From the NCBI GenBank assembly GCA_902806245.1, contig CADCVU010000012.1, positions 1 through 41,545 of the forward strand: a DNA stretch of 41,545 nucleotides, in the 5' to 3' direction. Every line of letters begins with the position of its first letter. Position 1 is the stretch's first letter. The notes under the pieces were generated by a model. It was not told where the DNA came from and made no database searches. It saw only the letters and a program-made list of their open reading frames with translations. Source of the stretch: an uncultured Solirubrobacterales bacterium (GTDB lineage: Bacteria; Actinomycetota; Thermoleophilia; Solirubrobacterales; Thermoleophilaceae). This document shows positions 7,676 through 28,982 of this stretch, piece after piece. A program made the translations under genes and the position numbers.

Positions 7676-9214
7676 ATGACCCAGCTCGACGCACCCACGG
7701 CACCCACCGAGGCGGACCCGCTCCCCGACCACGCACGCATCGCCATCGTCGGTGCGGGGTTCTCGGGCCTCGCCCTCGGGATGCGCCTGCTCGAGGAGGG
7801 GATGTACGACTTCGTCGTGCTCGAGCGCGCGCGCGACGTCGGCGGCACGTGGCGCGACAACACGTATCCCGGCTGCGCCTGCGACGTCCCGTCGCACCTC
7901 TACTCGTTCTCGTTCGCGCCCAACCCCGACTGGAGCCGCACCTACTCGGAGCAGCCGGAGATCTACGAGTACATCCGCCGCACCGCGGCCGAGCGAGGGG
8001 TCGACTCCTACGTGCGCTTCGGTCACGAGGTGCAGGGATCGCGCTGGGACGAGGATGCGCAGCACTGGCACATCGCGACGTCCTCGGGAGAGCTCACGGC
8101 CAACTACCTCGTGTCGGCCATGGGGCCGCTGAGCGCTCCCGCCTGGCCCGAGGTCGAAGGGCTCGACTCCTTCGAGGGGAAGATCTTCCACTCGGCGGAG
8201 TGGGATCACGAGCACGACCTCAACGGCGAGCGCGTCGGTGTGATCGGCACGGGGGCCTCGGCGATCCAGTTCGTACCGGAGATCCAGCCGCAGGTGGGCC
8301 GGCTGCACGTCTACCAGCGCACGCCGCCGTGGATCCTGCCGCGCCCCGACCGGGCCACCACCCGGCTCGAGCGGCGCGCCTACCGGCGCTTCCCGTGGCT
8401 CCAGAAGCTCACGCGAACGCTCGTCTACTGGCGCCAGGAGCTTCTGATGGTGCCCGGCCTCGTCTACCGACCGCAGATCATGAAGGCGGCCGAGGTGGCC
8501 TCGCGCTGGCACCTGCGCCGCCACGTGCGCGACGAGAAGCTGCGCGAGGAGCTGACTCCCGCCTACCGCCTCGGCTGCAAGCGCATCCTCATCTCCGACG
8601 AGTGGTACCCGGCGCTCGCGTCCGACAACGTCGAGGTCGTGCACTCGGGCATCGAGGAGGTTCGCGCGCACTCGATCGTCACCGCGGACGGGACCGAGCG
8701 CGAGATCGACACGATCATCCTCGGTACCGGCTTTCGCGCCACCGACATGGTCGGCTCCGAGCACATCTACGGGCGCGACGGCCGCAGCCTCCGCGAGACC
8801 TGGCAGGGCAGCCCGCAGGCCCACCTGGGGACGACCGTCGCCGGCTTTCCCAACCTGTTCCTGCTCGTAGGGCCGAACCTCGGTCCTGGCCACACGTCGG
8901 TCGTCTTCTACACGGAGTCGCAGGTGCGCTACCTGCTCGAGACCCTCAAGGCGCTCGAGCAGCGTGAGGCCACGAGCTTCGAGGTCCGCAAGGACGTGCA
9001 GGACGCCTACAACGCCGATCTCCAGGAGCGCATGCGCAAGACGGTCTGGACGACGGGCGGCTGCAACAGCTGGTACCTCGACGAGACCGGCAAGAACACC
9101 ACCCTGTGGCCGGGCTTCTCGTGGGAGCTGCGGCTGCGCACGCGGAGCTTCGACGAGACCGAGCACACGCTGCAGCGCGGCGGCTCGCGAGACCGCGCCG
9201 CGGCGGTCGCCTGA
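7676..9214 (+). CDS. Type I Baeyer-Villiger-type flavin monooxygenase
   Basis: IAIVGAGFSGLALGMRLLEEG, BVMO fingerprint FxGxxxHxxxWD = FEGKIFHSAEWDH, second Rossmann VGVIGTGASAIQFVPEI. Confidence 0.93.
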   Translation: MTQLDAPTAPTEADPLPDHARIAIVGAGFSGLALGMRLLEEGMYDFVVLERARDVGGTWRDNTYPGCACDVPSHLYSFSFAPNPDWSRTYSEQPEIYEYIRRTAAERGVDSYVRFGHEVQGSRWDEDAQHWHIATSSGELTANYLVSAMGPLSAPAWPEVEGLDSFEGKIFHSAEWDHEHDLNGERVGVIGTGASAIQFVPEIQPQVGRLHVYQRTPPWILPRPDRATTRLERRAYRRFPWLQKLTRTLVYWRQELLMVPGLVYRPQIMKAAEVASRWHLRRHVRDEKLREELTPAYRLGCKRILISDEWYPALASDNVEVVHSGIEEVRAHSIVTADGTEREIDTIILGTGFRATDMVGSEHIYGRDGRSLRETWQGSPQAHLGTTVAGFPNLFLLVGPNLGPGHTSVVFYTESQVRYLLETLKALEQREATSFEVRKDVQDAYNADLQERMRKTVWTTGGCNSWYLDETGKNTTLWPGFSWELRLRTRSFDETEHTLQRGGSRDRAAAVA

Positions 9215-9252
9215 GGCACCAGCGCGAGCGCCGCGCCGCGGCCTTCGATCCG

Positions 9253-10725
9253 TCAGGTCACCGCGAGCACGAGTACCGCGGCGTCGTCCTCGACGGGCCG
9301 CGGCGAGGCGTCGATCACCGCGCGCTGTATCGCGCGAGCGGTCGCGGCCGCGGAGCCACCGCGAGCGGCGCGGACCGCAGCTCGGACCCCGTCCGCTCCG
9401 AACGCTCCTCCCGAGGCGGTGCGGCGCTCCGAGATGCCGTCGGTGAGCAGGATCAGGCGCTCTCCCGGCCGCATGACACGGCCGTCGGGCCGCAGCTCCT
9501 GGCCGGTGGGCGCACGCCCGAAGGCGGGAACCGTCGTGCCCTCGAGCTCGGCGAGGCTGCCGTCCTCGCCCACCAGGAGCGGCGGCGGGTGGCCGCAGTT
9601 CACCCATCTCAGATAGCTCGTCGGCGCGTGCCAGTGGGCGACGACGCCGGTCGCCGAGAAGTCCGGCGCCCCGATCCGGTCGACGACCTCGTTCATGTCG
9701 CGGACCGCCTGCTCGATGTCCCCGCCGGTTCGCCGCGCCGCGCGCAGAGCTCCGAGGAGGACCGACGACAGTGCCGCCGCCTTCGGTCCGGTGCCCGAGG
9801 CATCGGCGATGGCGAGCCAGGCCCCGTCGCGGTTCTCGACGTGGTCGAACCAGTCGCCGCCGACGTCGTAGCTCGGCAGGAGGCTCCCCGCGAGCTCACC
9901 TCCGGCGATCCGCGCGTGGCGGGGAGGGAGGAGGTTGAGCTGGATCTCCGCGGCCGGGCTCGTCTCTCGGCGGCGGCGCGCGACCTCGAACACGTCGGTG
10001 TACGCACCCGCGAGCTCGAGCGCGGCGGTCCCCTGGCGCGCGAGCTCGGCCAGCGGCTCGCGAGGCGCCCTGAGCGCGAGCAGCACGCCGAGCGCCCGGC
10101 CGCGGAGCCACATCGGGACCGGAACGCAGCCGGGCAGCATCGACTGGACGCGGTCGTCGAGCTCGGTGAGCGCGTCGGGGGCGATCTCGGGGCCGACGGC
10201 GAGCGGACCCTCGAGGTGCGGGGGAAAGTCCTCGGAGCCCGCGAGCCGCCGCAGGTGCGAGCCGTCGATGTCGATCACGTACAGCGCCACGGAGACGCCC
10301 GCGATGCGCCGTGCCTCGGCCACGAGCTGATCGGCCACGAGATGGGGAGGTACCTCGTTGAGCACCTCGGTCGCGTCGAGCACCAGCGGGTCGCTGGCGC
10401 CGAGGCGGCCCGCGGGGCGCAGCTCGCCGAGCTCGGCCGCCCTGAGCTCGCTCGCGCCGGCGGGCGGCGCGATGACGAGTCCGTCGCTGCGCGGCGAGGG
10501 CCCCAAAGGTTCCATCGCGACCGCTGACCGCGCCTCGAGAGCTCCCATCAGGTCCTGGCGGGCCGGGAAGTGACGAAACAACGTCGAGCGCCCCAGGCCG
10601 CTTGTCGTCGCCACCTCACGCAGGCTCGCCTTCGGATTGGCGGCGAACACCGCGGCGGCGACGTTGAGGATCCGCTCGCGGTTGCGGCGGGCGTCCGCGC
10701 GGCGGCGCGTGTCGCAGCCGCTCAT
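9253..10725 (-). CDS. TetR-type HTH / GAF-like / SpoIIE (PP2C-like) phosphatase fusion, short paralog
   Basis: MSGCDTRRRADARRNRERILNVAAAVFAANPKASLREVATTSGLGRSTLFRHFPARQDLMGAL (TetR HTH), then GAF-like segment, then LPSYDVGGDWFDHVENRDG, AIADASGTGPKAA, LLTDGISERR, EDDAAVLVLAV. Start placed at internal ATG (10723-10725); ORF track extends to 10914. Confidence 0.88.
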   Translation of the reverse strand: MSGCDTRRRADARRNRERILNVAAAVFAANPKASLREVATTSGLGRSTLFRHFPARQDLMGALEARSAVAMEPLGPSPRSDGLVIAPPAGASELRAAELGELRPAGRLGASDPLVLDATEVLNEVPPHLVADQLVAEARRIAGVSVALYVIDIDGSHLRRLAGSEDFPPHLEGPLAVGPEIAPDALTELDDRVQSMLPGCVPVPMWLRGRALGVLLALRAPREPLAELARQGTAALELAGAYTDVFEVARRRRETSPAAEIQLNLLPPRHARIAGGELAGSLLPSYDVGGDWFDHVENRDGAWLAIADASGTGPKAAALSSVLLGALRAARRTGGDIEQAVRDMNEVVDRIGAPDFSATGVVAHWHAPTSYLRWVNCGHPPPLLVGEDGSLAELEGTTVPAFGRAPTGQELRPDGRVMRPGERLILLTDGISERRTASGGAFGADGVRAAVRAARGGSAAATARAIQRAVIDASPRPVEDDAAVLVLAVT

Positions 10726-10877
10726 CGCTCTCGACGCGTCGTCCGGGCGGCCTCGGTCGTCGTCGTTCGTCCGGTCGATAAGGCTCACCGCCGAGGTTGA
10801 TGCGTCCCAATTAGCCCTCGCCGAGGCTATCGGACGGGAAACTGAGACTTTCTCGGGCCAGAGCCGGCGCTCGGGCG

Positions 10878-10903
10878 GTCTACGACGCTCCACTTCGGGT
10901 ATA
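10878..10903 (+). promoter_or_regulatory. Candidate sigma-B-like promoter GTCT-N16-GGGTAT upstream of the CmpX-like gene
   Basis: GTCT at 10878-10881, GGGTAT at 10898-10903; fits the published Streptomyces sigma-B consensus form GNNT-N14-16-GGGTAC/T. Confidence 0.4.
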
Positions 10904-10967: not shown

Positions 10968-11876
10968 TTGAACGCCAGCGACACGCTGAACAACCTGCTC
11001 AACACGGTTCTCCAGGCCATCCCGACGATCGTCGTCTTCCTGCTGATCCTTCTCGTCGGTTACGTGGTCGCACGGGTCCTGCGGACGATCACCGCTCGGC
11101 TGCTGAGCCGGGTCGGCCTGGACCGGACGCTGCACAACAACGAGTACGGCCAGTACGCCGAGCGGGTCAGTCCCGGCTCCAGTCCCTCGCGGCTGATCGG
11201 CACCGTCGTCTTCTTCTTCGTACTGCTCGGTGCGCTTTCGGTGGCCATCTCCTACACCGGCAACCCCGGGCTGACCTCGCTGCTCGAGGGCGTGTACGGC
11301 TACCTGCCGAAGATCGTCGCCGCCATCCTGATCTTCGTCATCGCGGCCGCAGCGTCGGCCGCGCTCGGCGGGCTCGTGCAGCGCACGATGGGCGACACCC
11401 CGACGGGCAGCATCGTGAAGACCGTGGTGCCGGGCCTGATCATGGTCATTGCCGGGTTCATGATCCTCGACCAGCTCGAGATCGCTCCCGAGATCGTCCC
11501 GATCGCCTTCCAGGCGCTGCTCTACGGCCTGGCCGGAGCTCTCGCCCTGGCCTTCGGCCTCGGAGGACGGGACGTCGCCAGCAGGATGATCAACGACGCC
11601 TACGAGAAGGGCCAGGAGAAGCGCAGCGAGGTCCGCCGCGACTACGAGCTCGGCAAGGACCGCGGCCAGCAGGACGCCGAACAGGCCAAGCAGAGGGCGC
11701 AGCGCGAGCACGCCGCCCGCGGCGGAAGCCCGGGCGGAGGCCAGGAGCAGACCCAGCGCGGTGGAATCGAGCAGCCGGCGCCCGGCCGCGGGCGCCTGCA
11801 GGAGGACCCGACGCGTCAGGCCTCCAGAGGTGGCGAGGGCGGTCAGGGCCAGCCTCCGGCCGGCGGTCGGCGCTAG
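10968..11876 (+). CDS. CmpX-like conserved TM-helix / MscS-related membrane protein, copy 1
   Basis: TTG start with AAGGAG 7 nt upstream; IPTIVVFLLILLVGYVVARVLRTITARLLSRVGLDR..., ALAFGLGGRDVASRMINDAYEKGQEKR; long charged Gln/Arg tail. Confidence 0.85.
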   Translation: MNASDTLNNLLNTVLQAIPTIVVFLLILLVGYVVARVLRTITARLLSRVGLDRTLHNNEYGQYAERVSPGSSPSRLIGTVVFFFVLLGALSVAISYTGNPGLTSLLEGVYGYLPKIVAAILIFVIAAAASAALGGLVQRTMGDTPTGSIVKTVVPGLIMVIAGFMILDQLEIAPEIVPIAFQALLYGLAGALALAFGLGGRDVASRMINDAYEKGQEKRSEVRRDYELGKDRGQQDAEQAKQRAQREHAARGGSPGGGQEQTQRGGIEQPAPGRGRLQEDPTRQASRGGEGGQGQPPAGGRR

Positions 11877-11919
11877 CGACCGTCGCGCCGGGCGTCGGAA
11901 CGGATAGTGATCGCCCGGC

Positions 11920-12717
11920 GTGGCTGACCGCGACGGGGGTGGCAGGGTCGAGCCCGGTGCGGGGCCGAGCTCGACCGGCCTCTACGGGACCGACGTCGGC
12001 GCGAACATGGCGCGGACGGCGGTTGCCGAGCTCGTCGGTACCTTCGTCCTCGTACTCACCGGCATCGCCGTGGCGATCGCCGCCCTGCTCGACCGCCCGA
12101 CGGCCGGTGGAGGCTACGACTCGCTCGCGGTGGCGCTGGCCTTCGGCGTCGCGCTCGTCGCGGTGGTGGCGGCGATCGGGCACGTCTCCGGGGCGCACGT
12201 CAACCCGGCGGTGACGACCGCCCTGGCGGCCACCGGGAAGCTGCCGTGGAAGTACGTTCCCGCCTACGTGGCGGCCCAGTTCGCCGGGGCGATCCTGGCG
12301 GCGCTCGTGGCCTGGGGGATCTTCGGCGACGAGTCGCGCACGAGCGCGGGCGGGTTCCTGGCCAGCACCGGACCGGCGACCGGCGTGTCGTCGGTCCAGG
12401 CCCTCCTCGTCGAGGTCGTGATCACGTTCATCCTGGTCTTCGTCGTCCTCTCGGTGGCAACCGATCCGAGGGTGGACGAGGGAGTCGCGCCGATCGCCGT
12501 CGGCTTTGCCCTCGCGTGCGGCGTGTTCATCGCGGGTCCGATCTCCGGCGGAGCGGTCAACCCCGCCAGGGCTCTCGGGCCGATGGTGGTCTCGGGCAAC
12601 CTCGAGAGCGTGTGGCTCTACGTCGTCGGCCCGGTGGTCGGAGGGGTCGCCGCGGCGCTCCTCTACGACAGGGTGCTGGCTTCGGCCAGCCCGCCCGGCG
12701 ACGAGCCCGAGACCTGA
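11920..12717 (+). CDS. MIP family aquaporin/glycerol channel, copy 1
   Basis: GTG start; two NPA boxes SGAHVNPAVT and SGGAVNPARALGP; six-TM pattern. Confidence 0.95.
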   Translation: MADRDGGGRVEPGAGPSSTGLYGTDVGANMARTAVAELVGTFVLVLTGIAVAIAALLDRPTAGGGYDSLAVALAFGVALVAVVAAIGHVSGAHVNPAVTTALAATGKLPWKYVPAYVAAQFAGAILAALVAWGIFGDESRTSAGGFLASTGPATGVSSVQALLVEVVITFILVFVVLSVATDPRVDEGVAPIAVGFALACGVFIAGPISGGAVNPARALGPMVVSGNLESVWLYVVGPVVGGVAAALLYDRVLASASPPGDEPET

Positions 12718-12745
12718 ACCCGCGCTTCTGGGAGACTCCCGGCGC

Positions 12746-13741
12746 GTGACCTACGTCCTCCTCCTCGTCTCCTTCGTCCTCATCGTCGTCGGGGCGTTCT
12801 TCTTCACCAACTCCGTCGAGTGGGCGGGGGTGCGGCTCGGGCTCGCGCAGGGCGCGGTCGGGAGCCTGCTGGCCGCCGTGGCCACCGCGCTGCCGGAGTC
12901 GGTGATCCCGGTGATCGCGCTGATACAGGGCGGCTCGATGACGCAGCAGGAGATCGCCATCGGGGCGATCATCGGCGCGCCCTTCCTGCTCGGCACGCTC
13001 GCGATGGCCATCATCGGCTTCTCGGCCTACATGTACCGCAACCGGCGCGACCAGGACGAGCAGATCCGGTCAGAGGTGAAGACCGGCCAGCGGGACTTCG
13101 CCTTCTTCGTGGTCTTCTTCGGGCTGGCCATCCTCTTCGGCGCGCTCGGCCTCCCGACCGGCCTGCGCATCGCCGCGGCGGTCCTCTTCGTGCTCGCCTA
13201 CGTCGCTTACACGTACTGGACGGTCAAGCAGGGCAGGGGCGGCGAGGGCGAGCCCGACGCCCCGCTCTACTTCGACTGGACCCGCGACGACCCGCCCAAC
13301 AACTTCCAGCTGATCGCTCAGCTCGTCGTCTCGATCGCGGCGATCGTCGGCGGCGCCAACCTGTTCGTGGCGGAGATCGAATCCGTGGCCCTGAGCATCG
13401 GCGTGCCCATTCTCGTGCTCGCGCTCGTGCTCGCCCCGCTCGCCACCGAGCTGCCCGAGAAGCTCAACAGCGTGATCTGGGTGCGCGAGGGCAAGGACAG
13501 CCTGGCGCTCGGGAACATCACCGGGGCGATGGTCTTCCAGTCGACGCTGCCGGTGGCCTTCGGCATCGCCTTCACGTCGTGGGAGCTTCAGCCCGAGGCC
13601 ATCGTGGCCGGCATCGTCGGGCTCGTCGGGGGGTCGCTGGCCTGGTGGCGGCTGCACCAGCGCAGCTTCGGCGGTCGCTTTCAGCTCACCTGGCTCGCCC
13701 TCTTCATGGGCTTCGTCGTATACGCGCTCGTCGCGGGCTGA
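12746..13741 (+). CDS. Sodium/calcium exchanger (CaCA) family membrane protein
   Basis: GTG start at 12746; alpha-repeat-like segments ATALPESVIPVIALIQGG...IGAIIGAPF and LATELPEKLNSVIWVREGKDSLALGNITGAMVFQ. ORF track start (12506) lies inside the aquaporin gene. Confidence 0.88.
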   Translation: MTYVLLLVSFVLIVVGAFFFTNSVEWAGVRLGLAQGAVGSLLAAVATALPESVIPVIALIQGGSMTQQEIAIGAIIGAPFLLGTLAMAIIGFSAYMYRNRRDQDEQIRSEVKTGQRDFAFFVVFFGLAILFGALGLPTGLRIAAAVLFVLAYVAYTYWTVKQGRGGEGEPDAPLYFDWTRDDPPNNFQLIAQLVVSIAAIVGGANLFVAEIESVALSIGVPILVLALVLAPLATELPEKLNSVIWVREGKDSLALGNITGAMVFQSTLPVAFGIAFTSWELQPEAIVAGIVGLVGGSLAWWRLHQRSFGGRFQLTWLALFMGFVVYALVAG

Positions 13742-17954: not shown

Positions 17955-20357
17955 ATGGCCGAACAGACGCCATCGGAGGCCGAGCGCCGCATCGCGGCCG
18001 GTGCGCGGCACACCAGCGGGCTGACGTCGAGGCTCATCCTGAGCTACGTCGAACGCGAGGCCGGCCGTTCGGGCGTGGTCGCGGTCCTCAGGCACTCGGG
18101 TCTGCAGGCTTACGAGCAGCAGCTTCGCAACCCGGGTTACTGGTTCGACTTCGCCACCAAGATCGAGCTCTTTCGCTCGGCGTCGGTGGTGCTCGGCCAG
18201 CCCGACGTCGCCTGGCGCATCGGGCAGACAGCGGCCGACAACCCGGCCCTGTCCGGCTTCAAGCTCGCCCTGCGGGGCGTCGGCAGCCCGCGCCTGGTCT
18301 ACAGCGTCCTGTCCGGGACCGCCGGGCGGATGACGCGCGCCCATCAGCTCGAGCTGCTCGAGCTCGACGACGCGTATGCGCGCTTTCGCTACGTCGACAC
18401 GGCCGGTGTGGGATACGACCGCTTCGATTGCGACTACACGGCCGGCATGCTCTCCTGCGTACCGACGATGTTCGCCCAGCCCACGGTCACGTCAGTCACT
18501 CGCAGTGTCGAGTCACCGGGGCGAGCGAGTGCATCCACGAGGTCCAGTGGGAGCGCCACCCGACCGGAGGGCGGTGGCTCGCCGCCGGGGTCGCGGGGGC
18601 GTTCGCCGCCGGCTTCGGCGCGGCCGTGCCGCGCACACGCGCGTTCATCGGTGCGCCCCTTGCCCTGGCGATGGTGGGCGGCCGTCGCGCCCTGCTCAGG
18701 CAGCGCCAGCGCCAGCGCTCGCTCGAAGCCGAGATCCACGATCAGAAGGCCGCGGCCGAGGACCTGTCGGCATCCCTCCACGACCTGGTGTCGGTTCCTC
18801 GCACCGACGAGGTTCTGCGCAAGATCATGTCCCGCGCCCAGGCCCCTCTGCTGGGTCGCGAGATCGCCGTCCTCGCGTTCCGAGGCGACCACGTCAGTGC
18901 TCACGGCTCGAAGGGCGTCCCGATCGCCTCGCTCGATGTGCTCAAGCGCTGGCGGAGGCCCGCCCGGAGCTCCTCGACCAGCCGCTGACGCTCTCCGAGC
19001 TGGCCGAGGTTCCGGAGCTGGCCGACATGGCGGCTCACCCCGACGCCCCGCTCGGAGCGCTGGCGACCGCTCCCCTCGTCTTCCGCGGCCAGCGGCTTGG
19101 GATGCTGATCGCCCTCGCCCCGGGGTCCGACACCTTCTGCCCAAGGAGACCTCGCTGCTCGAGCTGTACGCCGCGGAGGCCGCGCTGGCGCTGGCCAACG
19201 CCAACCTCGTCGAGCGCCTCGAGGCTCTCGTGCGCGTCGACTCGCTCACCGGCCTGCTCAACCACCGCGAGTACCAGGAGGAGCTGGCGCGCGAGCTCGA
19301 ACGGGCCGGGCGCGATCAGCTCCCGCTGAGCGTCGCGATGCTCGACCTCGACGACTTCAAGCAGATCAACGACAGCTACGGGCACGCCGAGGGCGACCGC
19401 ATCCTGCGCCTGGTCGGCGAGACGGTCCGGCGCATGCTCGAACCGGGCGACTCGGCAGCGCGGATCGGCGGCGACGAGTTCGGGCTGATCCTCCCGGGCC
19501 GCCGGGCCGCGGAGGCCGACACCCTGGCGTCGCAGATCGATCGGCAGGTCAAGGCGCTCAACCTCGAGCTCGGAGCATCGTGGGGCGTCGCCGAGTGGCC
19601 GACGGCCGGGCCGAGCCAGAGCCTGTTGCTCTTCAGCGCGGACCGCGCTCTGTACGACCGCAAGCTCTCGCGCCGCAACGGCGCCACCAAGGCGAGCACC
19701 GAGCGTGAGCGCCGGCCGGCGAGCGCGGATTACACGCTCACCGCAGCCGACCACCAACGCGGGCTGACCGCGGCCCTGGCCCGCGCCGTCGACGCCAAGG
19801 ACGCCTACACCCGCAGTCACTGCGACATGGTGGCCGAGCTCTGCGTGCTCGTGGGTCAGGAGCTCGAGCTGGAGCCACGCCGCGTGCTCAAGCTCAGGCT
19901 CGCCGGCCTGCTCCACGACGTCGGCAAGATCGGGATCGCCGACGCCATCCTTCAGAAGCCGGGCCGGCTAAGCGACGATGAGTTCGAGGTCATGAAGACC
20001 CACACCACCCTCGGGCACTCGATCCTCTTCGGCGCCGAGCTGTTCGAGGAGGCGTACTGGGTGCTGCACCATCACGAGTACCTCGACGGATCGGGCTACC
20101 CCGACGGCCTCGCCGGGGAGACGATCCCGCTGGAGTCGCGGATCATGCTCGTCGCCGACGCCTTCGAGGCCATGACCTCGGACCGTCCCTACCGTCGCGG
20201 GCGCGACGAGCGGGCCGCGCTTGACGAGCTCCAGCGCTGCGCCGGCACGCAGTTCGATCCGAACTGCGTGGCGGCGCTCAGTCGCGCTCTGCGCCGCGAC
20301 GCGCGCTGGCTCTCCGAGTCATCGGCGCGCGGCGGCGTGAAGAGCGTCGTCGCCTGA
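17955..20357 (+). pseudogene. Sensor-GAF-like-GGDEF-HD-GYP cyclic-di-GMP protein interrupted by three apparent -1 frameshifts
   Basis: Frame 17955 gives a sensible N-terminus, then sense moves to the frame of ORF 17912..18988 (HSQCRVTGASECIHEVQWERHP...LDVLK), then to the frame of ORF 18376..19329 (LAEARPELLDQPLTLSELAEVPELA...APGSDTF), then back (LPKETSLLELYAAEAALAL...RIGGDEFGLILP...HDVGKIGI...HHEYLDGSGYPDGL). Confidence 0.8.
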
Positions 20358-20389: not shown

Positions 20390-21337
20390 CTAGGCCGCCT
20401 CGCGTAGCTCCTCGAGGTCGCCGCTCTCGGCGAGCAGCCGCAGCGCCGCCTCCTCGACCTTGCGCGTGCGCTCGGCGTTCATTCCGAGCTCGGCACCGGT
20501 TTCGCGGACCGACTTCGGCTCGCTCCCGCCGAGGCCGAAGCGCAGGGTCACGACCTTGCGCTCATCCTCGGGAAGCTGGCGGACGACCTCGCGGACGCGA
20601 GCCTCGCCGAGTGCCTCCCCGACCTCCTCGTCCGGCTGCGGCCGATCGCTCGGCAGCAGATCGCCGAGGGCGGTCTCGCCGTCCTCGCCGACCGCCTGGT
20701 CGAGGCTGGTCAGGTGCCGAGCGATCTCGCGAGCCTCAATCACCAGCTCCTCGGACAGCTCCGCCGCCTCTGCGATCTCCGCATCGGTGGGGTCGCGCCC
20801 GAGCTTCTTGGCGAGCTCCTGCTCGACCTTGCGGACCTTCCGCTCGCGCTGGCCGATGTGCACCGGCACGCGAATCGTGCGGCCCGAGTTGGCCAGGCCC
20901 CGCTGGATCGACTGACGGATCCACAACGTCCCGTAGGTCGAGAACTTGAATCCGCGTCGCCAGTCGAACTTCTCGACCGCGCGGATCAGGCCGAGCATGC
21001 CCTCCTGGATCAGGTCACCCAGTGAGAGACCCTGGCCCTGGTAGCGGCGCGCCTGCGAGATGACCAGACGGAGGTTGGCGTTGATCATCCGGTCCTTGGC
21101 CTGGACGTCGCCACGCTCGAACCGTTGCGCGAGCTCGATCTCCTCGGCCGCGGTCAGCAGCGGGTAGCGCGTCGCCTGCTGGAAGAACAGCTGGACCGAA
21201 TCCAGGCTCGGGTCCACGGGCCGCGTCTCGGCGGCCTCGCGGGCGGTCGGCTCGGCGCTGTGCGCACCGCGTCGGCGGCGTTGACGGTCGGTATCGGGCC
21301 CTGCTCGATTTCGGCGGGGTTCGGTGTTCACTGCCAC
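20390..21337 (-). CDS. RNA polymerase sigma-70 family factor (RpoD/SigA-like)
   Basis: [94 protein letters not shown]-terminal [17 protein letters not shown]. Confidence 0.95.
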
Positions 21338-24136: not shown

Positions 24137-24991
24137 CTATACCTGCGGGCCCGGGTCGCGTCGAACCGCCCCCGTCTGCTGACGGGTGTCGGTATCGCCG
24201 CCCGGGGTCGCCCCCTGGGCCTGCTGGGCTCGCTCCTGTAGTCCGCCCGGAGCCTTCTCCCGTGCCTCCTGCTGCCCGCGCTCCTTGCCCGCTCGCGCCT
24301 CCTGCTTGACCTGCTCCTTGTTCTCCTGCCCCTTGTCGTAGGCGTCCGAGACGAGCTTCGACGCGGTGTCGCGCCCGCCGAGGCCGAAGGCGAGGGCGAG
24401 GCCGAGCCCAAGCGAGGCAAGCAGCACGGTGTAGGTGATCTGAACGATGCTCTCGGCGATCCCGAGCTCGGTGAGGATCATGAAGACCGCGATCGTCATG
24501 ATCAGCGCGGGCGCGGCCGAGCCGACGACTTTGCCCGTGGAGGTGTCGCCCATGGTCCGCGCGATGATCCCGCCGATCGCCCCGGCGAGCGCACCGGCCA
24601 CCAGGAAGATGAGCAGGGCGGCCAGCAGGTTCGGCAGGAACGCGACGATCCCCGCGAAGAAGGCCGTGACCTCGGGGATGCCGAGGCGGCCCACGCCTAT
24701 GACCAGCGCGGCGAAGACGATCAGCAGCCGCACGACGTTCGCGAGCAGTGCCGACGGACTTCCCTGCGGGCTCGCCTGCTCGATGTACTGACCGCCTGGG
24801 CCCTGGGTCAGGCGTCTGTCGACCCCCACACGGCCAAGCAGTCTGGTGATGATCTTCTTGACGATCGCGGCCACGACGTAGCCGATGACGAGAATCACCA
24901 AGAAGGCGATCAGGTTGGGCAGGAAAGCCACGACTTCGTTGAGCCCGGTGAGCAGGCTGTCGGTCACGGCTGCGGCGATGGGGATGGTCAT
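24137..24991 (-). CDS. CmpX-like conserved TM-helix / MscS-related membrane protein, copy 2
   Basis: LPNLIAFLVILVIGYVVAAIVKKIITRLLGRVGVDRRL..., ALAFGLGGRDTASKLVSDAYDKGQENKEQV; same architecture and tail as copy 1. Confidence 0.87.
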   Translation of the reverse strand: MTIPIAAAVTDSLLTGLNEVVAFLPNLIAFLVILVIGYVVAAIVKKIITRLLGRVGVDRRLTQGPGGQYIEQASPQGSPSALLANVVRLLIVFAALVIGVGRLGIPEVTAFFAGIVAFLPNLLAALLIFLVAGALAGAIGGIIARTMGDTSTGKVVGSAAPALIMTIAVFMILTELGIAESIVQITYTVLLASLGLGLALAFGLGGRDTASKLVSDAYDKGQENKEQVKQEARAGKERGQQEAREKAPGGLQERAQQAQGATPGGDTDTRQQTGAVRRDPGPQV

Positions 24992-25029
24992 TCGGTCTCC
25001 CTGGTGGGTTTCGATGGTGTGGGCATTAC

Positions 25030-25917
25030 CTAGCCCGGTGCGTCGGTCTTCGAGACGGCGCGGTCGTAGAGGAAGGCGGCAGCCACGCCGCCCAGGATGG
25101 GACCGACGATGTAGAGCCAGAAGGCGGATAGATCGCCGGCCACGAGCATCGGCCCGAGCGCTCGGGCCGGGTTCACTGCCCCGCCCGATATCGGCCCGCC
25201 GATGACGACCCCTATGAAGAGCGCGAAGCCGACGGCGAGCGGAGCCGCCTGGCTCGGAGCCCGCTCGTCCGTGGCCACGGCTAGCACGATGAAGACCAGG
25301 ATGAACGTGATGAGGATCTCGACGATGAGCGCCTGGCCGATCGTGGCCGTGTCGGTCGGGAACGTCGCCCCGAGCAGCGCACTATCGCGGGACAACCGCC
25401 CGAAGACGGCCCACGTGGCGAGTCCGGCGAGGATCGCGCCGCCGAGCTGGGCGAGCAGGTAGGGCGGAACGAGCTTCCACGGGAACTTTCCCGTGGCGGC
25501 GAGTCCCAGAGTCACGGCGGGATTGACGTGCCCCCCGGACACGTGACCGATCGCCGCCACCACGGCGGCGAGGGCCAGCCCGAACGCCAGGGCGATGACC
25601 ACGGAGTCGTAGGGACTTCCGGCGATGGGTCGTTCGAGTGCCGCAGCGGTTGCGGCGGCGATGCCCGCGAAGACGAGGATGAAGGTCCCCACGAGCTCCG
25701 CGAGGCTCGCCTTGCCGGGGTCGGCCCCGACGTCGCTGCCGTAGAGACCGCCCCCGCCGCTCTCGCTCTGTTGCGACTCGCCCCGCCGAGCTCCGCCGCT
25801 CCGACGCCGGGGGGAGGTCTCCGCGACCTCCGCCGAGGCCGCGAAGCGATCCGCGTCCGCTGTGTTGGCGCGGGCATCGTGAGCTCGCCCACCTGTTGTC
25901 TGTCGACGTCTCGCCAT
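25030..25917 (-). CDS. MIP family aquaporin, copy 2
   Basis: SGGHVNPAVTLGL and SGGAVNPARALGP; shares GLYGSDVGADPGKASLAELVGTFILVFAGIAAA with copy 1. Confidence 0.95.
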   Translation of the reverse strand: MARRRQTTGGRAHDARANTADADRFAASAEVAETSPRRRSGGARRGESQQSESGGGGLYGSDVGADPGKASLAELVGTFILVFAGIAAATAAALERPIAGSPYDSVVIALAFGLALAAVVAAIGHVSGGHVNPAVTLGLAATGKFPWKLVPPYLLAQLGGAILAGLATWAVFGRLSRDSALLGATFPTDTATIGQALIVEILITFILVFIVLAVATDERAPSQAAPLAVGFALFIGVVIGGPISGGAVNPARALGPMLVAGDLSAFWLYIVGPILGGVAAAFLYDRAVSKTDAPG

Positions 25918-26782: not shown

Positions 26783-26918
26783 GACTAGTGGTAAAGACGC
26801 ATTAGAAATGAGACACGCCGACGGCGCAGGCTCCCTTACTGTCGCAGCTATGCCATAGTCGTGCCCCGTCCCGAGCATGTGACTCGAAGTCGGGGACGAA
26901 CGAGGTGCCTTCGGCGCG

Positions 26919-28982
26919 ATGACGAGCAGACCCGATCGGACTAAGCGCGCCGACGCCCGACGCAGCCGGGCCGCGATCATCGCGGCCAGCGCGCGCAGCC
27001 TCCGTGAGGGGCGCCGCCTCGATGCCCAAGAGATCGCCGAGGCGGCCGGCGTAAGCCGAGCGACCGTGTACCGCCACTTCCCCGGAGAAGCGGAGCTCGC
27101 GCGCGGCGTCGCCGGCGCGGTCCTCGACGAAGCATCAGAGGCCGTTGAGGAAGCCCTCGCGGGAGACAGGTCGCTGCTCGCCACTCTCAGGATCCTGGTG
27201 CTCCGCCTGTTCGAGATCGGCGGTCGTTACACGCCGACGCCGGTGAGTGACGCGTGTGCGGATGTCGGAACCGACGAGGTGGCACGACGGTTGCTGACGT
27301 TCGCCACGCGTCTCGCGAGCACAGCCGATCTACAGCCCTCGCCCCCACGCCAGTGGATGGCGGCGGCGGTGGCGCACTCCGTCGAGACGTGCCTTCAGCT
27401 CGGTTCGACAGCCGAGGATCCTCCCTCGGCCGCCGAGGCGCACTTCCAGCGCATGACCGACGAGGTCGATGGCGGGCTTGTTCTCCTCGACGGGGACGGC
27501 CTGGTCGTCTCGGCCAACGCGCGCGGGCGAGAAGCGATGGCGCTCGCCGATCCGGTTGCGCCCGGCCGGTCGGCCACGCCACCGGCGACCGTCTTCCTGT
27601 ACGAAGACGGGTCGCCCCTGCCTTCAGAGGCGCAGCCGATGAGCCGCGCTGTCCGTACCGGCGAGGAGGTTGGCACGACGGTCGGACACAGGCTCTCCGA
27701 CGGCGGCACCCGCTGGTACTCGATCGAGGCTCGGCCGCTTCGTCACCGCGGCGTGCTCTACGGATTCGTCGGACTCTTCGAGAACGTCACGGATCGACGG
27801 CAGGTGGAGCTCTCACAACTGAGACCGCCGGGCGAGCTCGGCGGTCTCAGGCCAGAGCCGCTCGACGCGGCGCGGGCGCTCGATGAGGTACCGGCTCCTC
27901 TCCTTCCCGAGCAGATCGTCGCCGAGGCGATGCGGCTGGTCGGAGTCCCGGTGGCCCTCTACGTCGTCGACATCGACGGCTCTCACCTTCTGCGCCTGGC
28001 CGGTGCCGAGCACTTCCCGTCCCGTCTGCCCGCCCCCCTCGCGCTCGGCCCGGAGCTCGCCGAGGACGGCATCCCCGATCTGAGGCTGCGTCTCGAGGCG
28101 GAGCTCCCCGGGGTGGCGATGGCACCGATGTGGCTGCGAGGACGGGCCGTCGGCCTGCTGCTCGCGCTGCGGGCCTCCGAGGACCGCCTGCTCGAGCTGG
28201 GTCGGCAGGGAGCAGCCGCCATGGAGCTCGCCGGTCGGTTCACCGACGTCTTCGACGCGGCGCGCCGGCGAAAGCCGATGAACCCCGCCGCCGAGCTTCA
28301 GCAGAGCCTTCTTCCGCCGCGGATCACGCATCTGGGCGCAGGTGAGATCGGCGGAAGCGTGCTGCCGAGCTACGACGTCGGAGGTGACTGGTTCGACTAC
28401 GTCGAAAATCGAGACGGTTCCTGGATCGCCATCGCCGACGCCGCCGGCAAGGGGCCGACGGCCGGCGGCTTGGGCAGCATCGCCCTGGCCGCCCTTCGCG
28501 CAGCTCGCCGAAACGACGCGAGCCTCGAGGAGGCGGCACAGACCATGCACGAGACGCTCAAGGCCATGGAGCAGCCCGAGTTCTTCGTGACCGCGGTGAT
28601 AGCGCGCTGGAATCCGGTCTACTCGCTGTTCAGCTGGATCAACTGCGGCCACCCTCCACCGCTGCTCGCACCGCGGCAGGGAGCGGTCGAAGAGCTCTGG
28701 AGCGAGCCCGCGCTCCCGCTGGGGCTCTTCGATCGCAAGCGGCGGTTCGTCCGCAGCCAGCGGCGAATCGAGAACGGCGACCGCTTGGCGCTCTACTCAG
28801 ACGGCATCTCGATGCGCAGGACCCACGACGGCTTCTTCGGCTGGAGGGGCATCGCGAGCGCCATCGACGGGGCGCCCGGACGGTCCGCGACGGCTACCGC
28901 ACGGGCGATCCAGGAGGCGGTGGTCAGTGCGTCGCCCGACCCCATCCGTGACGACGCCGCGGTCGTGGTGCTCGCCCCGTAA
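26919..28982 (+). CDS. TetR-type HTH / PAS / GAF-like / SpoIIE (PP2C-like) phosphatase fusion, long paralog
   Basis: SRAAIIAASARSLREGRRLDAQEIAEAAGVSRATVYRHFPGEAELARGV (TetR HTH); PAS-like VDGGLVLLDGDGLVVSANARGREAM; LPSYDVGGDWFDYVENRDGSWIAIADAAGKGPTAGG; LYSDGIS; RDDAAVVVLAP. Confidence 0.92.
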   Translation: MTSRPDRTKRADARRSRAAIIAASARSLREGRRLDAQEIAEAAGVSRATVYRHFPGEAELARGVAGAVLDEASEAVEEALAGDRSLLATLRILVLRLFEIGGRYTPTPVSDACADVGTDEVARRLLTFATRLASTADLQPSPPRQWMAAAVAHSVETCLQLGSTAEDPPSAAEAHFQRMTDEVDGGLVLLDGDGLVVSANARGREAMALADPVAPGRSATPPATVFLYEDGSPLPSEAQPMSRAVRTGEEVGTTVGHRLSDGGTRWYSIEARPLRHRGVLYGFVGLFENVTDRRQVELSQLRPPGELGGLRPEPLDAARALDEVPAPLLPEQIVAEAMRLVGVPVALYVVDIDGSHLLRLAGAEHFPSRLPAPLALGPELAEDGIPDLRLRLEAELPGVAMAPMWLRGRAVGLLLALRASEDRLLELGRQGAAAMELAGRFTDVFDAARRRKPMNPAAELQQSLLPPRITHLGAGEIGGSVLPSYDVGGDWFDYVENRDGSWIAIADAAGKGPTAGGLGSIALAALRAARRNDASLEEAAQTMHETLKAMEQPEFFVTAVIARWNPVYSLFSWINCGHPPPLLAPRQGAVEELWSEPALPLGLFDRKRRFVRSQRRIENGDRLALYSDGISMRRTHDGFFGWRGIASAIDGAPGRSATATARAIQEAVVSASPDPIRDDAAVVVLAP

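What the first reader, a model, noticed from the sequence alone, without database searches (positions are those of the whole stretch)
9253..10725. TetR-type HTH fused directly to GAF-like and PP2C phosphatase domains
After the HTH (SLREVATTSGLGRSTLFRHFP) the short paralog goes almost straight to a GAF-like segment, without the usual TetR ligand-binding bundle, and then to a phosphatase with intact acidic metal-site motifs (GDWFD, ADASGTG, TDG, DDAAVLVL). A phosphatase that may itself bind DNA would be an unusual link between the RsbU/SpoIIE pathway and one-component regulation. No STAS or anti-sigma kinase gene is in the window, so its substrate is unknown.
Basis: partly seen in the sequence, partly recalled or inferred. 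Interest (0 to 1): 0.7.

Follow-up and report, generated by a model that had tools for sequence, protein, structure and literature searches.

The report
DNA-binding stress phosphatase with conserved operator
A family of bacterial proteins joins a TetR-type DNA-binding head directly to a stress-signalling phosphatase, and the DNA next to their genes carries a conserved binding-site-like motif, so one protein may both bind a promoter and switch on a general stress pathway.

Summary
Window 9253-10725 (-) encodes 490 aa: a TetR_N HTH (res 19-63), a disordered linker, a GAF-like domain and a SpoIIE/RsbU-type PP2C with its metal motifs. It is not an artefact: about 65 distinct Solirubrobacterales proteins share the design, and all 27 tested match TetR_N. 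52 of 67 lie divergent to their upstream neighbour (baseline 200/632). The neighbours are recurrent membrane/stress genes: PRC-DUF2382, MscS-like TM, aquaporin, Holin-X, MpsC, BrkB, STAS. Both window paralogs fit this layout. New here: de novo motif finding in 47 divergent intergenic regions gives AAnYGRGACA, found in about 80% of held-out regions (controls fixed at 5%), in helically phased inverted pairs (13 bp: 8 vs 0.23 expected). It is present at all 7 PRC genes divergent to a family member and at 1 of 20 elsewhere. The recognition helix is almost invariant. Partner genes often carry a SigB-type promoter, and the genome encodes SigB-type sigma, RsbW and STAS proteins. Most likely it is a one-component DNA-binding regulator that is also an RsbU-like phosphatase. 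DNA binding is well supported by inference; phosphatase activity, substrate and signal are untested. No prior description was found in the library searched.

The parts
9253..10725 (-). Short paralog: TetR_N HTH - linker - GAF-like - SpoIIE/PP2C phosphatase, 490 aa
10537..10671 (-). TetR_N HTH (residues 19-63), recognition helix GRSTLFRHF
   Evidence: Pfam; conservation in 64 members; AlphaFold pLDDT about 90
10006..10374 (-). GAF-like sensor domain (residues about 118-240)
   Evidence: AlphaFold model; Pfam GAF in only 3 of 27 homologs
9259..9828 (-). SpoIIE/PP2C catalytic domain (residues 300-489), motifs GDWFD, ADASGTG, TDG, DDA
   Evidence: Pfam 121 bits; Foldseek to RsbU domain of Rv1364c, SpoIIE, SiaA, RssB
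10840..10849 (+). Candidate operator half-site AACTGAGACT; counterpart AAATGGGACT at the ortholog L031
10803..10812 (-). Candidate operator half-site AATTGGGACG; 37-bp distance to the other site is the same in the ortholog L031
10878..10902 (+). SigB-like promoter GTCT-N15-GGGTAT (one mismatch in the -35) towards the MscS-like gene
   Evidence: inferred
10968..11876 (+). Divergent partner: MscS-like conserved TM-helix protein (PF05552)
   Evidence: same arrangement in L031
11920..12717 (+). Aquaporin / major intrinsic protein (PF00230), follows the MscS-like gene
12506..13741 (+). Na/Ca exchanger family protein (PF01699); true start is downstream of this ORF start; next to the MscS-like gene also in L031
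26919..28982 (+). Long paralog: TetR_N + TetR-type helical bundle + PAS + GAF-like + SpoIIE/PP2C, 687 aa
26806..26815 (+). Candidate operator half-site AAATGAGACA; one of only 3 exact AANTGRGACA in the 2.3-Mb genome
26840..26849 (-). Second, weaker half-site AGCTGCGACA, inverted, 34 bp from the first; the 34-bp spacing is also present in the ortholog L054
25923..26720 (-). Divergent partner: PRC-barrel + DUF2382 protein (YsnF-like)
25030..25917 (-). Aquaporin (PF00230), same strand after the PRC gene
24137..24991 (-). MscS-like conserved TM-helix protein (PF05552)

Best explanation
The protein is a bifunctional one-component regulator. Its TetR-type HTH, as a dimer probably held together by the GAF and PP2C domains, binds AAnYGRGACA half-sites in the divergent promoter between its own gene and a membrane/osmotic-stress operon, and regulates that operon and/or itself. 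Its GAF-like domain (plus PAS and a TetR-type bundle in the long paralog) senses a signal. Its PP2C domain dephosphorylates a STAS anti-anti-sigma protein, as RsbU does, which frees a SigB-type sigma that can read the partner promoter. Shown: architecture, family conservation, divergent layout, motif enrichment and phasing, and presence of SigB-type, RsbW and STAS genes in the genome. Inferred: binding of this motif by this HTH, the dimer, catalysis, STAS substrate, sign of regulation and signal.
For: Fusion conserved: full or near-full HTH-GAF-PP2C in most of about 69 loci; 66 of 232 order genomes hold a match; TetR_N in 27/27. Recognition helix: R43 100%, T45 98%, R48 100%, F50 100% of 64 (alignment columns). 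Divergent upstream neighbour 52/67 against 200/632 for other genes. Recurrent partner families. Motif: TGAGACA in 12 intergenics against 1.0 expected; TGRGACA in 18/47 targets against 5/232 control intergenics; de novo EM log-likelihood 167 against at most 72 on controls, with about 80% of held-out targets above the 95% control quantile. Inverted pairs at 13 bp: 8 against 0.23 expected, and 29/36 in helical phase against 35%. PRC genes divergent to a family member 7/7 at 13 bits or more, against 1/20 at 12 bits or more without one, including two loci not used in training. SigB-type promoter towards the partner in 9/47 against 0.11 expected, 1 towards the TetR gene. Genome: SigBFG sigma, RsbW and STAS. 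One member's divergent partner is a STAS protein with the DSTGL motif. PP2C fold matches RsbU-type phosphatases.
Against: No binding or activity data. The TetR_N score of the window protein alone is marginal (24.4 against 24). The short form lacks the TetR dimerisation domain. An exact 13-bp palindrome is present in only 8 of 47 regions; many others have single or widely spaced half-sites. In three homologs (L031, L040, L043) the TDG aspartate is Asn, so catalysis may not be universal. Against other divergent intergenic regions the SigB-type motif is only modestly enriched (9/47 against 5/61); the window's short gene has a one-mismatch version and the long gene none. No Rsb genes adjoin the window genes. 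Homologous loci are not independent observations; training across clades recovers only 18/33 in one direction and 11/14 in the other.
Confidence: 0.6

Rival explanations
1. The protein is purely a DNA-binding regulator: the PP2C domain has become a sensor or dimerisation module, as in adaptor-type RssB, with little or no phosphatase activity.
For: TDG aspartate replaced by Asn in L031 (closest ortholog of the window gene), L040 and L043. The model resembles RssB structures among the best hits.
Against: The window proteins and most homologs keep all acidic motifs; GGDWFD, D308 and D480-D481 are invariant. STAS/RsbW/SigB-type genes exist in the genome.
Confidence: 0.2
2. The operator-like motif belongs to another regulator of the partner stress genes; the HTH of this protein binds elsewhere or only mediates protein contacts.
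For: No direct binding evidence. Partner genes are of general-stress type and could have other regulators.
Against: The motif follows the TetR-PP2C gene across different partner families (PRC, MscS-TM, MpsC, Holin-X, STAS) and is missing at PRC genes that lack a family neighbour (1/20). In 8 genomes it occurs only 5-14 times per genome, yet in four of them a copy lies beside a family gene. The recognition helix is nearly invariant.
Confidence: 0.1
3. The protein is just an RsbU-like phosphatase; the HTH is vestigial or a wrong start codon.
For: Marginal TetR_N score for the single protein.
Against: HTH conserved in 64 members with invariant DNA-facing residues; codon bias supports coding across the HTH; operator-like motif.
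Confidence: 0.03

Closest known systems
RsbU / RsbP / SpoIIE-type PPM phosphatases (including Rv1364c and RssB)
   Same: C-terminal SpoIIE-type PP2C with a sensor domain and a helical linker; metal motifs kept; best fold matches. PMC12143880 describes N-terminal PAS, GAF, response-receiver, HAMP and RsbU-NTD sensors joined to PP2C dimers by coiled-coil linkers.
   Different: Here the N-terminus is a TetR-type DNA-binding HTH with a candidate operator next to the gene; no TetR-PP2C protein was mentioned in the passages read, and none was found in the paper searches.
TetR-family one-component repressors (e.g. TetR, EthR2, KstR)
   Same: TetR_N HTH, divergent target gene, operator-like motif in the shared intergenic region. 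The long paralog also has a TetR-type bundle (EthR2 match).
   Different: The short form lacks the TetR ligand-binding/dimerisation bundle and carries GAF and PP2C instead; operator half-sites are variably spaced but in helical phase.
SigB general stress response (B. subtilis, Streptomyces SigB homologs)
   Same: Partner genes include YsnF-like PRC-DUF2382 proteins (ysnF is listed in the B. subtilis SigB regulon, PMC7824861). Promoters resemble GTTTAA-N12-14-GGGWAW (PMC8346170). RsbW, STAS and SigBFG are in the genome.
   Different: The phosphatase gene is unlinked to rsb genes in most loci and appears to bind its own target promoter.

Membership tests
TetR-family transcriptional regulators | N-terminal TetR_N HTH | tested here: met
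   27/27 members match PF00440; window protein 24.4 bits against cut-off 24; AlphaFold helices
TetR-family transcriptional regulators | C-terminal helical ligand-binding and dimerisation domain | tested here: not met
   Absent in the short protein: residues 72-113 are disordered and GAF-like follows. Present in the long paralog
TetR-family transcriptional regulators | Palindromic operator in the regulated, often divergent, promoter | tested here: inconclusive
   Conserved AAnYGRGACA half-sites with phased inverted pairs; exact 13-bp palindrome in 8 of 47; no binding assay possible
RsbU/SpoIIE-type PP2C phosphatases | SpoIIE/PP2C domain with metal-binding acidic motifs | tested here: met
   PF07228, 121 bits; GGDWFD, D308, TDG, DD present; fold match
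RsbU/SpoIIE-type PP2C phosphatases | Acts on a phosphorylated STAS anti-anti-sigma protein | not testable with these tools
   STAS and RsbW genes in the genome; STAS neighbours in L129 and L134
RsbU/SpoIIE-type PP2C phosphatases | N-terminal sensor domain | tested here: inconclusive
   GAF-like fold in the model, weak Pfam GAF support (3/27)
SigB-type regulon for the partner genes | GTTT-N14-16-GGGWA promoter towards the partner | tested here: inconclusive
   9/47 against 0.11 by shuffling, but 5/61 in other divergent intergenics; in the window only a one-mismatch site

The most novel reading that the evidence does not exclude
A DNA-tethered partner switch: the phosphatase is held at its operator beside a SigB-type promoter, so that DNA binding and release of SigB from its anti-sigma are coupled in one protein, giving local as well as global control. 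In some loci the half-site overlaps the -35 element (L137, L139, L141) or abuts it (L104, L034).
Probability: 0.25. Interest if true: 0.85.

Novelty: new variant of a known kind. Interest (0 to 1): 0.72.

Why it matters
It would join two systems usually treated as separate, one-component repressors and partner-switching control of sigma factors, in a single polypeptide. It gives a concrete operator, target genes and testable residues in an under-studied actinobacterial order. It also suggests that a TetR-type HTH can work, and keep its binding site, without the canonical TetR dimerisation domain, and that an HTH can join the list of modules found in front of RsbU-type phosphatases.

Tried and rejected
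Chance or annotation artefact: rejected by conservation in about 65 members. Wrong start codon: rejected. Motif being a general feature of PRC/stress promoters: rejected by 1/20 at PRC genes without a family neighbour. Motif as a general feature of divergent intergenics: rejected (2/61). A plain search for any exact inverted repeat (half 5-7 bp, any spacer) showed little excess; signal appeared only once the motif was modelled. A sigma-70 consensus was not enriched. Fusion outside the order: in 397 phylum genomes only Solirubrobacterales hits covered the HTH; the others began in GAF or PP2C. Literature searches for TetR with SpoIIE/PP2C found no description. The strict motif elsewhere in the own genome (C166, C212) suggested no clear further regulon.

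Full report
OBSERVATION. The gene at 9253-10725 (-) encodes 490 aa. Pfam places TetR_N at residues 19-63 (24.2-24.4 bits, cut-off 24) and SpoIIE at 300-489 (121 bits). The single-protein HTH call is marginal, so I tested it on the family. The own genome holds two more members: the long paralog in the window at 26919-28982 (+) and a short one on C56. The order holds matches in 66 of 232 genomes, and genome contigs gave 32 loci, among them Solirubrobacter, Conexibacter and Patulibacter isolates. The HTH lies directly before GAF-PP2C in nearly all of about 69 distinct loci. All 27 aligned members match TetR_N, best E 1.6e-12. Two long-branch members, L132 (3498-5597) and L150, lack the HTH match.

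STRUCTURE. AlphaFold (27 sequences) gives mean pLDDT 83.5: HTH helices at about 90, a disordered linker 72-113, a GAF-like domain and PP2C. Foldseek finds the RsbU domain of Rv1364c, SpoIIE, SiaA and RssB. The long paralog has in addition a TetR-type bundle (EthR2 5n1i, E 4.9e-5, TMt 0.63) and a PAS domain. In the tree of GAF-PP2C the long forms form one clade and HTH-bearing short forms occur in all other major clades.

NEIGHBOURS. Both window genes are divergent to membrane genes: the short one to an MscS-like TM gene, an aquaporin and a Na/Ca exchanger; the long one to PRC-DUF2382, an aquaporin and an MscS-like TM gene. Across the family the upstream neighbour is divergent in 52 of 67, against 200 of 632 for other genes in the same loci (gene calls are my own codon-bias calls). 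Nearest divergent partners are PRC-DUF2382 (about 19), MscS-TM (7), Holin-X (5), MpsC (4), BrkB, DUF1707, DUF892 and STAS. The partner type changes several times on the tree. ysnF is listed in the B. subtilis SigB regulon (PMC7824861); that PRC-DUF2382 proteins are YsnF-like is from general knowledge, supported by the Pfam control hit in B. subtilis.

OPERATOR. The 47 divergent intergenic regions are enriched for TGAGACA (12 against 1.0 expected). EM from 60 unsupervised seeds has AAnTGRGACA as its best solution; log-likelihood is 167 against at most 72 for control intergenics; in two-fold cross-validation 80% of held-out targets exceed the 95% control quantile; training on one clade and testing on the other gives 11/14 and 18/33. 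In the full PWM the position before the first G is T or C, hence AAnYGRGACA. Inverted half-sites occur at 13 bp in 8 cases (0.23 expected), then at 34 and 45-46 bp, in steps of the DNA helix: 29 of 36 pairs in phase against 35% expected. At the short gene, sites 10840-10849 (+) and 10803-10812 (-) lie 37 bp apart, as in its ortholog L031; at the long gene, sites 26806-26815 (+) and 26840-26849 (-) lie 34 bp apart, as in its ortholog L054. The exact motif AANTGRGACA occurs three times in the 2.3-Mb genome, once here. In eight other genomes it occurs 5-14 times each, and in G025, G066, G177 and G182 one copy lies within 400 bp of a family gene. Key control: PRC-DUF2382 genes divergent to a family member carry the motif in 7 of 7 (two of these loci, L197 and L208, were not in the training set), and those without a family neighbour in 1 of 20; two further PRC loci have a SpoIIE or HTH match nearby that is not a divergent neighbour and were counted in neither group. 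The recognition helix [GS]R[SAG]TLYRHF is nearly invariant, as expected if the whole family reads one motif.

SIGMA. GTTT-N13-17-GGGWA lies towards the partner in 9 of 47 regions (0.11 expected by dinucleotide shuffling) and towards the TetR gene in 1. This agrees with SigB promoters in the literature (PMC8346170, PMC7824861). Other divergent intergenics also have it in 5 of 61, so the link is moderate. In the window only the short gene has a one-mismatch version (10878-10902). In L137, L139 and L141 the half-site overlaps the -35, and in L104 and L034 it abuts it. The genome encodes a SigBFG sigma over the curated cut-off, RsbW-like kinases and STAS proteins, with adjacent STAS-RsbW pairs on C110 and C161. 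L129's divergent partner is a STAS protein with the DSTGL phospho-site; L134's lacks it.

MECHANISM. A dimer binds phased half-sites in the shared promoter; GAF and other N-terminal domains sense a signal; PP2C dephosphorylates a STAS protein and frees a SigB-type sigma. RsbU-type phosphatases are activated by dimerisation through helical linkers (PMC12143880), which suggests how DNA binding, dimerisation and catalysis could be coupled. That coupling is inference.

DISTRIBUTION AND NOVELTY. In 397 phylum-level genomes only Solirubrobacterales hits covered the HTH. No paper in the held library described such a protein, but most subscription journals are not in it, and no architecture database was on hand. 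I file it as a new variant: known domains, a new combination with a conserved candidate operator.

CAVEATS. Related loci are counted as if independent. Catalysis may be lost in members with TNG in place of TDG (L031, L040, L043). No experiment has been done.

Noticed in passing
window 10968-12717 and 24137-25917: Two cassettes that both pair an MscS-like TM gene with an aquaporin, in different gene order, each beside one paralog of the same regulator family within 15 kb: looks like an old duplication.
   Followed up: partly
window 20390-21337 (-): A sigma-70 family factor with regions 1.2, 2, 3 and 4 (group-2-like) lies between the two regulator paralogs; its relation to them is unknown.
   Followed up: no
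window 17955-20357 (+): A GGDEF plus HD-GYP type ORF whose N-terminal part shows conflicting reading frames, possibly a frameshift in the assembly.
   Followed up: no
L031, L040, L043: TDG metal-site aspartate replaced by Asn (TNG/SNG) in three family members, including the closest ortholog of the window gene: possible pseudophosphatases.
   Followed up: no
L052 intergenic, about index 50-80 (upstream of the L052 family gene at 7821-9431): A second inverted repeat, AACCGATAC-N5-GTATCGGTT, matched in part by L058 and with different letters in L043 and L122; may be a further operator variant in Patulibacter.
   Followed up: partly
L026 and L027 (own contigs C110, C161): Two nearly identical copies of a STAS/RsbW-like locus on separate contigs with different flanking genes on one side: duplication or strain mixture in the MAG.
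   Followed up: no
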